The position numbers were made by a program, and so were the translations under genes. Under the pieces are notes generated by a model. It did no database searches. It was not told the origin of the DNA and saw only the letters and a list, made by a program, of their open reading frames with translations. This document shows positions 7,683 to 15,359 of a DNA stretch of 18,935 nucleotides, piece by piece (positions within the stretch are counted from its first letter, which is position 1; the number at the start of each line of letters is the position of its first letter). Source of the DNA: an uncultured Pedobacter sp. (GTDB lineage Bacteria; Bacteroidota; Bacteroidia; Sphingobacteriales; Sphingobacteriaceae); contig NZ_CAMLIG010000048.1 in assembly GCF_946480185.1 (NCBI RefSeq), forward strand, positions 1-18,935, read 5' to 3'.

Positions 7683-7808
7683 ACTTACTACTTTTGACTT
7701 TCAACTTATTACTCACAACTTATTACTCACAACTTATTACTTACTACTTATTACTTTTGACTTATAACTTTCAACTTACTAATTTTGACTTTTAACTTAT
7801 CACTCCTA
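7683..7808 (+). repeat. Array of 18 heptamers (ACTTnnn) abutting manA
   Basis: From 7683 the sequence breaks into eighteen consecutive 7-nt units without a gap. All begin AC or AA and most begin ACTT: for example ACTTATT at 7704, 7718, 7732 and 7746, ACTCACA at 7711 and 7725, ACTTTTG at 7690 and 7753. The last unit (ACTCCTA) shares its final A with the manA ATG at 7808. Within the array a 14-nt dimer is repeated exactly at 7704-7717 and 7718-7731. No inverted arm is seen on the left side (7547-7682), where I find only the candidate promoter. The rest of the 7547-7807 gap holds no gene. The same ACTTnnn word is used in the array at 14349-14443. Confidence 0.85.
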
Positions 7809-8782
7809 TGCTATATCCATTAAAATTTAAAACCATATTTAAAGATAAAATCTGGGGCGGAGAAAAAATTAAAACCTATCTAGGAAAAGATTTTTCACCA
7901 CTTCCAAACTGTGGCGAAACCTGGGAAATATCTGGCGTACGTTCTGATGTTTCTGTTGTTGCAAACGGTCCATTAACGGGCACTTCGCTTGCCGATTTGT
8001 TAAGCGATAAAAAAGCCGAACTTATCGGAAAAAAGAATTATGAAAGATTCGGAAACGAATTTCCTTTATTGATTAAATTCATAGACGCCAACGAAGACCT
8101 ATCTATCCAAGTGCATCCAAACGATGAAATGGCAGAAAAACGTCATCACTCCAAAGGAAAAACAGAGATGTGGTATGTAATCCAAGCGGATGAAGGTTCT
8201 TCATTAATTGCTGGGTTTAACCAAAAGGTTGACAAGGAATTGTACTTGAAAAAGTTTAACGCCGGCGAATTAACCGATATTTTAAACAAAGAAGAAGTAG
8301 CAGCAGGCGATGTTTTCTTTCTACCGGCAGGCCGTGTACACACTATTGGAAAAGGATTGCTTATCGCAGAAATTCAGCAAACATCTGATATTACTTACCG
8401 CATTTACGATTTTGACCGTGTAGATGATAAAGGCAATAAAAGGGAACTTCATGTTGAAGAAGCCTTGGATGCCATTGATTATAACTTTTACAACGAGTAT
8501 AAAACTAAATATAACAAAACACAGAATACACCAACCGAACTGGTAGACTGCCCGTACTTTACCACTAATATTTTAGACTATACAAAAGATGTAGCCAGAG
8601 ATTACAGCGTGTTAGACAGTTTTGTAATTCATGTTTGTGTAGAAGGATCGTACATTTTAAAATATGGAATTGAGGAATTACCGGTACAAATAGGCGACTG
8701 CGTTTTAATCCCAGCAACAATCGAAAAAGTTGTACTAAGCACCAACGAAGGTTTTAAAATTTTGGAAAGTTATATTGGTTAA
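7808..8782 (+). CDS. manA: Mannose-6-phosphate isomerase, class I
   Basis: A 324-residue cytosolic Zn enzyme interconverting mannose-6-phosphate and fructose-6-phosphate; it feeds GDP-mannose and GDP-fucose synthesis or allows mannose use. It has the short bacterial form typical of Bacillus-type ManA. Zinc ligands are readable: Gln101 and His103 in SIQVHPND, Glu120 in GKTEMWYV, and His178 in LPAGRVHTIG. Arg198 in ITYRIYDFDR is the expected active-site arginine, and NCGETWEISG (residues 34-43) is a family block. The ATG at 7808 gives the standard N-terminus PLKFKTIFKDKIWGG. It stands apart from the upstream transferase gene by 261 nt filled partly by the heptamer array, so it likely has its own promoter, but its role fits the polysaccharide genes nearby. 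Confidence 0.95.
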   Translation: MLYPLKFKTIFKDKIWGGEKIKTYLGKDFSPLPNCGETWEISGVRSDVSVVANGPLTGTSLADLLSDKKAELIGKKNYERFGNEFPLLIKFIDANEDLSIQVHPNDEMAEKRHHSKGKTEMWYVIQADEGSSLIAGFNQKVDKELYLKKFNAGELTDILNKEEVAAGDVFFLPAGRVHTIGKGLLIAEIQQTSDITYRIYDFDRVDDKGNKRELHVEEALDAIDYNFYNEYKTKYNKTQNTPTELVDCPYFTTNILDYTKDVARDYSVLDSFVIHVCVEGSYILKYGIEELPVQIGDCVLIPATIEKVVLSTNEGFKILESYIG

Positions 8783-8790
8783 CAAGCACA

Positions 8791-8808
8791 AATACTTAAT
8801 TAAGTATT
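8791..8808. terminator. Perfect AT-rich palindrome after manA
   Basis: An 18-nt perfect palindrome (AATACTTAATTAAGTATT, 7-bp stem with AATT loop) starts 8 nt after the manA stop and is followed by CTTTT. It could be a weak intrinsic terminator or an operator; the stem has only two G-C pairs, so termination strength would be low. Confidence 0.4.
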
Positions 8809-8839
8809 CTTTTGGATTACTTATTGTAATATCCAAACC

Positions 8840-9799
8840 ATGTTTAACTATGTTGACTTAATTTTATTCCTAATTATAAGTTTAAGTATTTACCACGGCT
8901 ACCGTCGCGGTTTTATTTTAGGATTTTTAGAACTTTTTGCATTAGCCACCAGTATTTTGGTGGCTTTTTATTTTTATCAGAATACTGCACTTATATTATC
9001 AAAATATATTCAGTTAGACGAACGCTGGAATTTGCCATTCGCCTTTCTAGTTACGTTACTACTCTCACGCTTTATCATTGGCGCTATACTTTACTTTTTA
9101 ATCAAACAACTGCCACTCAGCTTACATAAAAACAAAGTCAATCGTTATTCAGGGCTTATTCCGGGAATTATCAGAGGATTCTTTTACGCATCATTAGTTG
9201 CCATGTTGTTTCTGTTTATCAACTTATGGGGCGGTTTAACACAAGAAACTCGCGAAAGCTATATCGCCAACAACCTCACACAAAAAATAGAATTTATTGA
9301 CACCAAAATCGCATCGGACATTAGCGAGCAGGTAAAAAAAAGTATCAGTAAATTAACCATCGAGCCAGAGTCTGACCAAACCGTTTATCTGCATTTCAAA
9401 GTCGAGCACCCTGTGGTTAACGAAAAAATGGAAAATCATTTATTAGTGTTGGTAAACGAAGAAAGAAGAAAGTTCCATTTGCCTTTACTTGTCCGCGATA
9501 CCGCGTTGAGGACCGTTGCCAGAGCACACTCTTTAGATATGTTTAAAAACGGTTACTTCTCACATATTAGCTTATCGGGTTCCTCTCCTTTTGACAGAAT
9601 TACCGCTCACCATATCAATTACACACAAGCAGGAGAAAATCTGGCTTTAGCACAAACTGTCGAAATTGCACATATTGGCCTTATGAATTCACCTGGCCAC
9701 AGGGCTAATATTTTAAATCCAAGGTATGGCAGAGTTGGAATTGGGATCATGGATGGTGGAATTTACGGAATAATGGTGACACAAAATTTCAGAAACTAG
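8840..9799 (+). CDS. CvpA-family membrane protein fused to a CAP (SCP/PR-1) domain
   Basis: A 319-residue two-domain protein. Residues 1-130 form a CvpA/colicin V production-like membrane domain with about four helices (4-18, 28-47, 66-90, 113-130) and the family features IYHGYRRGFILGFLELF and IPGIIRGFFYASLV. After a linker (about 130-193), residues 194-319 form a CAP domain with the expected His230 (ARAHSLDM), Glu266 (AGENLA) and His287 (SPGHRANIL), ending in the QNF strand. The CAP domain probably faces the periplasm, but topology is inferred. CvpA-CAP combinations occur in other bacteria; CAP functions are poorly known (wall or protein binding). It lies between manA and the patatin gene on the same strand with short gaps (57 and 44 nt) and may be cotranscribed with them. 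Confidence 0.85.
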   Translation: MFNYVDLILFLIISLSIYHGYRRGFILGFLELFALATSILVAFYFYQNTALILSKYIQLDERWNLPFAFLVTLLLSRFIIGAILYFLIKQLPLSLHKNKVNRYSGLIPGIIRGFFYASLVAMLFLFINLWGGLTQETRESYIANNLTQKIEFIDTKIASDISEQVKKSISKLTIEPESDQTVYLHFKVEHPVVNEKMENHLLVLVNEERRKFHLPLLVRDTALRTVARAHSLDMFKNGYFSHISLSGSSPFDRITAHHINYTQAGENLALAQTVEIAHIGLMNSPGHRANILNPRYGRVGIGIMDGGIYGIMVTQNFRN

Positions 9800-9843
9800 C
9801 ATCCATCGCCTATAATTTTCTTTTTATTGCTACATTTAGTTTA

Positions 9844-14444: not shown

Positions 14445-14939
14445 CTAATTTAATTTAACATCTTTCAACAAGTCGCTTACTAAAGCATCTTGTTTTTGCT
14501 TATCATCAAACTGTTTGCGCAAAACCTTTTCAGCAATCTCTAAAGATAAAGAAGCCACTTGATTTTTCACTTCGTCCAAAGCGGCAATCTTTTGATTGTT
14601 AATTTCAACTCTTGCTTTTTCAATCAATTTAGCACCTTCAGTTTGTGCAGTATTTTTTGCTTCGGCAACAATTTGGTCTTTTAACTCTTTGGCTTCCTTT
14701 AAAATCTGATCACGCTCTATTCTAGCTTCCTTTAATAACGTTTCGTTTTCACTTGATAAACGAGAAATTTCTTCTCTGGCAAGCTCTGCTTTGTTTAAAG
14801 CATCTTCAATAGAACGTTCACGCTCATGAATTGCACCTAAAACAGGTTTCCAAGCTAATCTTTTCAAAAGCACCAACAGAACCAAAAATGATATTAAGGT
14901 CCAAAATACTAAGCCAATACTAGGAGTTACTAAATCCAT
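14445..14939 (-). CDS. atpF: F0 ATP synthase subunit b
   Basis: A 164-residue stator stalk protein. One N-terminal membrane helix (about residues 7-26, IGLVFWTLISFLVLLVLLKR) is followed by a long charged, coiled-coil-forming helix (about 36-150, rich in E, K, A and containing RERSIEDALNKAELAREE). The pattern VFWTLISFLVLL and W30-K-P-V are typical of bacterial b subunits. The start codon lies only 33 nt beyond the T-tract of the strong hairpin at 14973-15013, and no separate promoter is evident, so it depends on read-through or RNA processing. Confidence 0.96.
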   Translation of the reverse strand: MDLVTPSIGLVFWTLISFLVLLVLLKRLAWKPVLGAIHERERSIEDALNKAELAREEISRLSSENETLLKEARIERDQILKEAKELKDQIVAEAKNTAQTEGAKLIEKARVEINNQKIAALDEVKNQVASLSLEIAEKVLRKQFDDKQKQDALVSDLLKDVKLN

Positions 14940-14972
14940 AAAATTATATATGCTGTTGTTAAATAATCATTT

Positions 14973-15013
14973 AAAAAAATCGGAAAGATAGCCAATCGCT
15001 AACTTTCCGATTT
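14973..15013 (-). terminator. Strong terminator-like hairpin between atpE and atpF
   Basis: On the minus strand, 9 nt after the atpE stop codon, an 11-bp perfect stem (AAATCGGAAAG/CTTTCCGATTT) continues after one T-T mismatch into a 4-bp TAGC/GCTA stem and a 5-nt loop. A run of T follows at once (complement of seven A at 14973-14979). By form it is an intrinsic terminator, yet four essential atp genes lie downstream on the same strand. It is best read as a partial terminator or a 3'-end stabiliser that raises the amount of mRNA for the c subunit. Confidence 0.8.
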
Positions 15014-15021
15014 GTTAATTC

Positions 15022-15240
15022 TTAAGCTCCTACGTTATTACCTAGAAGCGCTACTACCACACCAAACAAAGCAACACCTTCAACAAGGGCTGCAGCGATG
15101 ATCATAGCAGTTTGAATTTTTGAAGCAGCCTCAGGTTGACGAGCAATACCTTCCATTGCTTTTCCACCAACTTGACCAATACCGATACCTGCACCGATAA
15201 CTGCTAAACCTGCACCAATTGCAGCGATTGAACCTACCAT
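15022..15240 (-). CDS. atpE: F0 ATP synthase subunit c
   Basis: A 72-residue proteolipid forming the rotor ring in the inner membrane, with two helices around the polar loop ARQPEA (residues 33-38). The ion-binding carboxylate is Glu54 in AALVEGVALFG. The residue after it is Gly, not the Ser/Thr of Na+-binding rings, and the Gln in helix 1 (Gln23) does not align with the Na+ ligand when the loops are superposed. Proton coupling is therefore the likely mode (inference). The glycine-rich first helix (GAGLAVIGAGIGIG) is normal. It is followed by the strong hairpin at 14973-15013. Confidence 0.97.
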   Translation of the reverse strand: MVGSIAAIGAGLAVIGAGIGIGQVGGKAMEGIARQPEAASKIQTAMIIAAALVEGVALFGVVVALLGNNVGA

Positions 15241-15289
15241 AACTGTTTTAATTTATTATATGATTGTTAAACAAAATGTTTCTCTTCTT

Positions 15290-15359
15290 GAGAGCAAAGT
15301 CACGACTACAAATTAGTCTTTAATCTTTACTCTTTTTTTCTTGACTCTTGACTCTAATT
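15290..15359. repeat. Weak inverted heptamer array with GACTA-TAGTC core
   Basis: A palindromic core GACTA-CAAAT-TAGTC (15304-15318) is followed on the right by 7-nt words TTTAATC and TTTACTC, an 8-nt T-rich unit, then TTGACTC twice (15319-15354), ending at the atpB stop codon. The left arm is short and poor (GAGCAAAGTCAC). It has the same general plan as the arrays at 12028 and 14349 and sits between atpB and atpE. Confidence 0.6.

What the first reader, a model, noticed from the sequence alone, without database searches (positions are those of the whole stretch)
7683..15359. A family of heptamer-word arrays shared by several intergenic gaps, with palindromic GACT/AGTC cores
Arrays at 7683-7808, 12028-12112, 14349-14443 and (weaker) 15290-15359 obey one rule: 7-nt units, each degenerate in 2-4 positions, placed without gaps, running flush to start or stop codons. 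Arrays 2-4 have inverted arms around a small palindrome (GACT-TTTT-AGTC; AAGAC-TAG-GTCTT; GACTA-CAAAT-TAGTC). Each locus has its own word (ACTTnnn, nTCTCAn, TTnACTC), while loci 6.6 kb apart share ACTTnnn. Units within a locus resemble each other more than those of other loci, which suggests local spreading by slippage or conversion, yet the plan (period, inversion, core) is kept. Heptanucleotide repeats (STRR) are known in heterocystous cyanobacteria; I know of no described counterpart with inverted arms and a core in Bacteroidota. They may be mRNA-folding spacers, protein-binding arrays, or products of an unknown repeat-making mechanism.
Basis: partly seen in the sequence, partly recalled or inferred. 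Interest (0 to 1): 0.78.

Follow-up and report, generated by a model that had tools for sequence, protein, structure and literature searches.

The report
Word-swapping seven-base DNA hairpins
Gaps between genes in this bacterium, and loops inside some genes of its relatives, are filled by hairpin-shaped DNA built from seven-base words; the words can be exchanged wholesale between close relatives, which points to an undescribed way in which genomes write repeats.

Summary
All four window arrays show lag-7 autocorrelation (z 6.7, 4.9, 5.9, 4.5); two (12028-12112, 14349-14443) are inverted-arm hairpins, one is a single arm, one is weak. Related genomes hold many such arrays, with four features that I did not find described. 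(1) Period 7 dominates, 8 is second. (2) The 5' arm is G-rich in 67 of 72 polar heptad hairpins, against 50 of 91 ordinary ones. (3) Words are swapped as cassettes: between two genomes with median 98% identity along the atp operon, only the two heptad/octad gaps and the alignment end are unalike. (4) Hairpins also lie in frame inside genes: a lysA loop of 13-37 residues reads like many words (DNA seen in two genomes). Stem mismatches show no mRNA-strand bias (104 G.T, 108 A.C); ordinary hairpins do (148, 104). I favour a DNA-level process: 7-nt slippage, fold-back copying of the G-rich strand, exchange between dispersed arrays. This is inferred, not shown. Array density varies widely and is low in unselected samples. 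The GACT/AGTC core is no rule (2 of 88).

The parts
7683..7804 (+). Array 1, single-armed: about 17 heptads, mostly of ACTTNNN type, G-poor (3 G, 27 C), abutting the start of a mannose-6-phosphate isomerase-like gene (7808-8782, +)
   Evidence: lag-7 segment score 39; z 6.7; no hairpin; Pfam PF20511
7614..7625 (+). Possible relic of a G-containing left arm of array 1 (weak)
   Evidence: 12-nt inverted repeat with 7699-7710, 92% complementary, 73 nt apart
12032..12061 (+). G-rich arm (11 G, 0 C) of the atpA-atpG hairpin, word TGAGAAT/TGAGATN
   Evidence: lag-7 segment; hairpin z -5.9 on the mRNA strand
12063..12074 (.). Core GACT-TTTT-AGTC of that hairpin; the stretch AAAAAGTCATCTC (mRNA strand) is shared with the Pelobium gap L005 and nearly with P. 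psychrophilus L002
12086..12112 (+). C-rich arm (0 G, 10 C) of the atpA-atpG hairpin
12120..12170 (-). Probable relic of an older cassette: resembles the left half and core of the TAGTATTGAG-type hairpin that fills the whole gap in L003
   Evidence: comparison of gaps by eye; lag-7 segment 12141-12169
14349..14386 (+). G-rich arm of the atpF-atpH hairpin, word AAGTTAT; the lag-7 part 14359-14383 has 7 G, 0 C
   Evidence: 38-nt arm, 76% complementary
14385..14397 (.). Core AAGAC-TAG-GTCTT
14406..14443 (+). C-rich arm of the atpF-atpH hairpin; the lag-7 part 14409-14441 has 0 G, 10 C
15304..15355 (-). Array 4 in the atpB-atpE gap: period-7 run at 15313-15355 (3 G, 9 C on +) beside the palindrome GACTACAAATTAGTC; a period-7 run sits in the same gap in L001, L005, L007; the gap is only 42-45 nt, without array, in L002, L004, L006, L008
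11137..16466 (-). Host operon atpB-atpE-atpF-atpH-atpA-atpG whose gaps hold arrays 2-4
   Evidence: Pfam PF00119, PF00137, PF00430, PF00213, PF00006, PF00231

Best explanation
The arrays are DNA-level cassettes, 'heptad hairpins', made and remade by aberrant DNA copying and kept only where they do no harm. Proposed steps: (a) a 7-nt step of slippage lays down and lengthens a tandem array (period shown, slippage inferred); (b) the nascent G-rich strand folds back and copies itself, so the inverted C-rich arm lies 3' of the G-rich arm (polarity and arm correspondence shown, fold-back inferred); (c) the arms keep correcting each other by template switching (inferred); (d) copying from another array elsewhere replaces the whole word, so the cassette changes while the flanking genes do not (replacement and a dispersed supply of same-word arrays shown, ectopic copying inferred). 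Selection then acts on place alone: stop-to-start gaps, few promoter-bearing gaps, and in-frame loops of proteins. In the window this explains three array-bearing gaps in one operon, what looks like an older cassette cut by a newer one in the atpA-atpG gap, and a single-armed array before the mannose-6-phosphate isomerase gene.
For: Period: hairpins with arms of 18 nt or more had best lag 7 in 71, 8 in 16, 9 in 5, 5 in 1, 6 in 1, none in 61; in loci not picked by a period-7 pattern 39, 8, 2, 1, 1 and 40. Polarity: 67 G-first, 5 C-first, 1 equal of 73 heptad hairpins; ordinary hairpins 50, 41, 15 of 106; not pattern-picked 35, 4, 1. DNA rather than RNA: periodic hairpins in co-directional gaps 104 G.T to 108 A.C mismatches, ordinary ones 148 to 104 (p 0.007); in the not-pattern-picked part 67 to 64 and 105 to 68. 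Arms resemble each other unit by unit beyond the shared word: score 1079 against 962 (sd 15) with units shuffled and register re-optimised, higher than expected in 47 of 62 hairpins. Cassette replacement: L003/L004 agree at 93% of third codon positions of atpF, H, A; gaps atpE-F 0.96, atpH-A 0.90, but atpF-H 0.52, atpA-G 0.60; of 94 windows the only ones under 0.75 are these two gaps and the alignment end. L001/L006 share the atpF-H cassette at 0.89 although third positions agree at 0.63. Supply: the L001 cassette gives 22 matches in G001, 15 in G005, 10 in G006, 11 in G007 (a hairpin can match once per strand, and only 40 candidates per genome were scored), with unlike cores in the loci read. 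In-frame copies: lysA and DUF7948 genes.
Against: Ectopic copying is not needed if a site is emptied and refilled. Some cassettes are stable: four closely related genomes keep the same atpF-H hairpin at 0.91-0.97, and the g22-g23 cassette of the spc operon is 0.93 alike in L213/L214, so replacement is not constant. The unselected 400-kb sample of P. arcticus held only 3 lag-7 arrays at the stricter threshold against 1.0 in shuffles. Words shared by genomes as far apart as G003 and G043 (TGAGATN; AtpF 88% and 52% like the window's) are not predicted by slippage alone. The G.T/A.C test has limited power: the two classes differ at p 0.04, and per hairpin the ordinary class is 63 to 41 (p 0.04). 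The polarity rests on co-directional (94 to 10) and convergent gaps (9 to 0); in divergent gaps it is 2 to 2. Arrays outside periodic hairpins lean the same way by place (near the stop 22 G-rich, 6 C-rich; near the start 10 C-rich, 4 G-rich), so part of the polarity could come from composition beside genes and not from fold-back.
Confidence: 0.5

Rival explanations
1. Mobile palindromic element (MITE- or RPE-like): hairpins are inserted by a transposase-like enzyme at stop codons and protein loops, then drift in sequence.
For: Filled and empty sites at orthologous gaps (atpB-atpE; atpF-atpH: 17 of 50 genomes have 10 nt or less); dispersed same-word hairpins; in-frame insertions as in Rickettsia RPEs (passages of PMC2229807); the DUF7948 loop of relatives carries other repeat-like peptides as well.
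Against: No common core or unit order between same-word copies in the loci read; no target duplication seen by eye at the atpB-atpE junction; several unrelated words per genome. No enzyme was sought.
Confidence: 0.2
2. Selected mRNA hairpins between cistrons (RNase III sites, decay barriers or insulators) whose sequence is free but whose fold is kept.
For: Folding z -3.7 and -5.9 in the window; hairpins in the same atpF-atpH gap of many species with different words; arms match at 1429 of 1743 positions; 5' arm median 5 nt after the stop codon; fewer arrays in divergent gaps (9 of 148) than elsewhere (83 of 593), p 0.008.
Against: No strand bias of wobble mismatches (104 to 108) where ordinary hairpins show it; many arrays have no periodic partner arm (56); in-frame copies inside genes; 17 of 50 genomes lack the atpF-atpH hairpin.
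Confidence: 0.15
3. End addition: a templated polymerase adds G-rich heptads to both 3' ends of a broken chromosome, and joining gives head-to-head arms, as in a fused telomere.
For: The polarity G-rich arm, core, C-rich arm is the one that head-to-head fusion would give; unlike cores and interiors.
Against: Arms match unit by unit beyond the shared word, not expected of independent additions; many words per genome would need many templates.
Confidence: 0.07
4. Arrays of binding sites for a DNA- or RNA-binding protein with a 7-nt step.
For: Within a word some positions are fixed and others free (mean sorted phase conservation 0.52 to 1.00), as a recognition site would show.
Against: Many unrelated words, exchanged at one orthologous site.
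Confidence: 0.05
5. Chance low-complexity DNA.
For: The window is 35.5% G+C; array 4 is weak.
Against: 0 of 1000 shuffles at each array; pattern 158 against 6 reversed-control hits in P. arcticus; 0 of 50 gaps in 100 kb of E. coli and 0 of 33 in 50 kb of pSymA by the same scan.
Confidence: 0.01

Closest known systems
TAACTGA heptamer arrays (MacGregor 2015, PMC4679880; abstract, section 12 and passages read)
   Same: 7-nt units, mostly intergenic, near start codons, variable copy number, in some Bacteroidetes; relatives can lack them at the same gap.
   Different: One fixed heptamer as direct repeats (169 sets and one inverted case in the main genome); paired arms, polarity and exchange of words were not described in what I read.
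Heptanucleotide LSSR / STRR (Mrazek et al. 2007, seen only as cited in PMC4679880; cyanobacterial STRR recalled)
   Same: 7 nt reported there as the commonest unit in most genomes; slippage with a 7-nt polymerase contact proposed.
   Different: Tandem units of one sequence; here units vary at set positions and lie in inverted arms.
Rickettsia palindromic elements, MITE-like small repeats (passages of PMC2229807)
   Same: Small palindromic DNA in gaps and in frame inside conserved genes.
   Different: RPEs are described as having terminal inverted repeats and a common element; heptad hairpins share only a grammar, and one site changes its word.
Quasipalindrome template-switch mutation (PMC8794818 outline and abstract; PMC7202029 start of abstract in a listing)
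   Same: Can create and homogenise inverted arms in a single copying event; my steps b and c.
   Different: In what I read, nothing on period-7 arms, G-first polarity or exchange between distant loci.

Membership tests
LSSR/STRR tandem heptamers | uninterrupted tandem repetition of one exact unit | tested here: not met
   identity at lag 7 within the window arrays 0.51-0.66; mean sorted phase conservation 0.52-1.00. A near-exact 14-bp run exists in a relative (G001:C1:980174-980370)
LSSR/STRR tandem heptamers | 7-nt period | tested here: met
TAACTGA repeats | the heptamer TAACTGA as direct repeats | tested here: not met
   words in the window are ACTTNNN, TGAGAAT/TGAGATN, AAGTTAT
MITE/RPE palindromic elements | copies share a common sequence or conserved terminal repeats | tested here: not met
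   same-word hairpins have unlike cores and unit orders in the 20 loci read; different words in one genome
MITE/RPE palindromic elements | target-site duplication | tested here: inconclusive
   none seen by eye at atpB-atpE filled against empty gaps; one site only
MITE/RPE palindromic elements | presence in gaps and in frame inside genes | tested here: met
   lysA, DUF7948 genes, both in relatives, not in the window
MITE/RPE palindromic elements | a mobilising enzyme | not tested
   no enzyme was sought
REP/REPIN | conserved short palindrome with GTAG-like tetranucleotide and RAYT partner (recalled) | not tested
   neither was searched for; unlike cores speak against it
Known structured RNA (Rfam 15) | match to a family model | tested here: not met
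   0 matches at E up to 1 over the whole window

The most novel reading that the evidence does not exclude
Many relatives of this bacterium have a dedicated or strongly favoured copying route that writes period-7, G-first hairpin cassettes at gene boundaries and in protein loops, and exchanges the word of a whole cassette in one event: a class of dispersed repeat defined by a grammar instead of a sequence.
Probability: 0.3. Interest if true: 0.9.

Novelty: new variant of a known kind. Interest (0 to 1): 0.72.

Why it matters
Dispersed repeats are usually recognised by shared sequence; these share only period, polarity and inversion, so sequence-based repeat finders would be expected to miss most of them. 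If the reading is right they give a natural record of template switching in bacteria, explain why homologous gaps in otherwise near-identical operons can be unalignable, and feed new peptide segments into conserved enzymes such as diaminopimelate decarboxylase. Matching arms, often read as proof of an RNA structure, could then arise without selection on RNA, which is a caution for covariation-based RNA discovery.

Tried and rejected
Rejected: a GACT/AGTC core as a family feature (2 of 88 cores). Rejected: arrays as a mark of core operons in general. The spc operon is rich in relatives of G033 (40 of 120 gaps in 12 loci), but ribosomal loci of 14 other genomes gave 1 of 54, and in the seven of these with a sampled background 1 of 26 against 27 of 516. 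Disfavoured: simple RNA selection. Pooled lag spectra over all gaps were too diluted to help. The dcw operon of G039 relatives gave arrays in only one of six genomes (L220). Rfam gave nothing.

Limits of the samples: the G039, G043 and G033 stretches were mostly chosen round pattern hits, so their densities are inflated. The spc and dcw loci of relatives were chosen because L197 and L176 are array-rich there. The not-pattern-picked set includes these loci and one stretch (L063) that was placed on a listed hit. The 73 heptad hairpins count two hairpins twice (L111 with L205, L128 with L183); one search leaves these out. For the atpF-atpH gap 50 of the 60 genomes matched were read. Genes were called by a simple ORF rule, so small genes under 60-80 codons count as gaps. 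The output was cut in the middle. The lysA table holds the 120 best of 7999 scored proteins, 14 of which the search pattern missed; for all but L282 and L284 only peptides, not DNA, were seen.

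
Full report
Setting. The window carries the ATP synthase operon on the minus strand (atpB, E, F, H, A, G) and, on the plus strand, a sugar transferase, a mannose-6-phosphate isomerase-like gene, a CvpA/CAP-domain protein and a patatin. 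The nearest of nine related loci found is that of Pedobacter arcticus (AtpH 87% identical). No genome is held for the window itself, so genome-wide questions were asked in relatives, most of which bear only handles (G001 and so on).

The arrays. Each of the four has a lag-7 excess that none of 1000 dinucleotide shuffles reached. Arrays 2 and 3 are hairpins; the RNA of the coding strand folds with z -5.9 and -3.7. Their arms are three-lettered: 12032-12061 has 11 G and no C, 12086-12112 no G and 10 C; 14359-14383 has 7 G and no C, 14409-14441 no G and 10 C. Array 1 is one G-poor arm (3 G, 27 C) without a hairpin; array 4 is a weak array next to a short palindrome.

A class in relatives. The pattern TNNNACTTNNNACTTNNNACTT gives 158 overlapping hits in P. 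arcticus against 6 for the reversed pattern, and hits in 8 of 8 genomes. Other words dominate elsewhere: GAAACNN gives 342 hits in G039 (reversed control 0), 38 in G043 (control 12), 7 in G026 (control 10) and none in the other 17 of 20 genomes; TGAGANN hits 11 of 20 genomes. For ACTCANN the built-in control is useless, because the pattern reads the same backwards. In stretches of three array-rich genomes, mostly picked round hits, lag 7 gave 35, 10 and 30 arrays against 0.3, 0 and 0 in shuffles, lag 8 gave 6, 2 and 10, and other lags stayed near background except multiples of 7 or 8. Unselected samples are much sparser: gaps with arrays 9 of 241 in P. arcticus and 2 of 45, 1 of 31, 0 of 34, 0 of 38 and 1 of 32 in G009, G026, G035, G079 and G074; E. 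coli 0 of 50, pSymA 0 of 33. A published survey of exact short tandem repeats names Bacteroidota as dense in them (one passage of PMC12699852).

Same site, different word. In the atpF-atpH gap, 50 genomes gave 19 heptad arrays, 4 octad arrays, 17 gaps of 10 nt or less and 10 others. Words read off the gaps include AAGTTAT (window), AAGTTAA, ACTTACA, ACTCACC, TACTCAA, TGAAACT, GAAACCC and TTTTGAA. In the ribosomal spc operon of G033 and its relatives the same gaps carry different words. In the pair L197/L206 (SecY 96% alike) gap identities are 0.58, 0.64, 0.45 and 0.80 where arrays sit, against 0.99, 0.99 and 0.96 for the other three stretches of 40 nt or more, two of which contain small genes; in L213/L214 they are 0.70, 0.86, 0.76, 0.62, 0.93 and 0.77 against 0.96 and 0.97. 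In the atpA-atpG gap there are at least three cassette types; the window holds a TGAGAT-type hairpin whose core letters recur in L005, preceded by what looks like half of a TAGTATTGAG-type cassette, complete in L003.

Whole-cassette replacement. L003 and L004 agree at 93.4% of third codon positions of atpF, atpH and atpA; gaps atpE-F and atpH-A agree at 0.96 and 0.90, but atpF-H and atpA-G at 0.52 and 0.60. Of 94 windows of 50 columns along the operon (median 0.98) the only ones under 0.75 are those two gaps and the alignment end. In L004 the stop codon of atpA appears to lie inside the array. Conversely L001 and L006 share the atpF-H cassette at 0.89 with third positions at 0.63. Stability also occurs: four closely related genomes keep one atpF-H cassette at 0.91-0.97.

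Polarity. Of 73 heptad hairpins 67 have a G-rich 5' arm, 5 a C-rich one, 1 neither; ordinary hairpins are 50, 41 and 15 of 106. Three of the five exceptions are one cassette in related genomes. Loci not picked by a period-7 pattern give 35, 4 and 1. An inverted repeat reads the same on both strands, so this polarity does not by itself follow the direction of transcription; it says that the inverted copy lies 3' of the G-rich strand. Two results limit this. In divergent gaps the count is 2 to 2, against 94 to 10 in co-directional and 9 to 0 in convergent ones. And the 56 arrays outside periodic hairpins lean the same way by place: in co-directional gaps 22 G-rich and 6 C-rich near the stop, 10 C-rich and 4 G-rich near the start.

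DNA or RNA. If selection keeps an mRNA fold, stem mismatches should favour G.U over A.C on the mRNA strand. Periodic hairpins between co-directional genes: 104 G.T, 108 A.C. Ordinary hairpins in the same loci: 148 and 104, p 0.007. Without the pattern-picked loci: 67 to 64 and 105 to 68. The test can therefore see RNA selection and does not see it here, with limited power (difference between classes p 0.04). Arms match at 1429 of 1743 positions and correspond unit by unit beyond the shared word (1079 against 962, sd 15), which inverted copying explains without selection; variable positions are often left mismatched (2 of 4 in L197:6271-6421).

Inside genes. In G002 and G013 a heptad hairpin lies in frame in lysA, between AYHQIENIS and YDVVGPICE. 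The left arm has an AAGT word in both; the right arm is TGAGAT-type in G002 and ACTT-type in G013. In the two alignments shown with solved structures this stretch is shorter. Among the 120 best LysA relatives 106 fit a search pattern; the loop measures 13 to 37 residues and many of its long forms read like translations of words, for example SQISNLKSQIS, SRKSEVGSQKSEV, LTTHHSP, LKVESEKLKV (peptides only). In G043, proteins with DUF7948 and mostly SprB repeats carry TGAGATN hairpins in frame at one loop, where some relatives have a short turn such as NGTT (60 of 120 listed relatives aligned).

Interpretation. Slippage explains period 7 and has been proposed for heptamers (Mrazek et al. as cited in PMC4679880). 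Template switching can create and repair inverted arms in one event (PMC8794818, abstract). Adding a preference for fold-back of the G-rich strand, and copying between dispersed arrays, accounts for polarity, unlike cores, concerted arms and cassette replacement. The preference and the copying are inferences. I hold this at 0.5 against an insertion element (0.2), RNA selection (0.15) and the rest.

Known or new. Heptamer arrays and palindromic elements in genes are known separately. An exchangeable, G-first, period-7 hairpin without a common sequence was not found in searches of an open-access library that lacks most subscription journals.

Noticed in passing
window 14940-15021 (atpE-atpF gap) and the same gap in L001-L009: An ordinary hairpin follows atpE in all ten loci (fold z -3.2 to -7.8), with CGATTGG in its loop region in nine of them (GGTTGG in L009); it looks like a partial terminator or a stability element for the c-subunit message.
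   Followed up: partly
L193:14926-15061, and the DUF7948 loop of P0001-P0060: The same protein loop in relatives holds other repeat-like peptides (for example LPAGRQG, TLSPSGRAGEG), probably other palindromic repeats; one loop seems to collect several repeat families.
   Followed up: partly
L188:4084-6494 (G043): A uvrD/pcrA-like gene is split over two frames; a mixed heptad array of about 150 bp lies just after the break. A sequencing error is possible.
   Followed up: no
G001:C1:980174-980370: A near-exact tandem run of a 14-bp unit (two ACTT heptads) in P. arcticus, as slippage would make.
   Followed up: no
L207, L211, L213, L214 (spc gaps) and other loci: Period-8 arms (such as TTCACTAA words) coexist with heptads and lean the same way in polarity (13 G-first, 2 C-first of 15).
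   Followed up: partly
L204:7102-7357, L189:4657-4770, L166:11479-11657: Chimeric arrays in which blocks of two different words abut, as block copying between arrays would leave.
   Followed up: no
L008:7550-7706 (atpH-atpA gap): A palindrome of the CCCTGCCTG..CAGGCAGGG kind (not period 7) sits in a gap that is only 50 nt and lacks it in the window.
   Followed up: no
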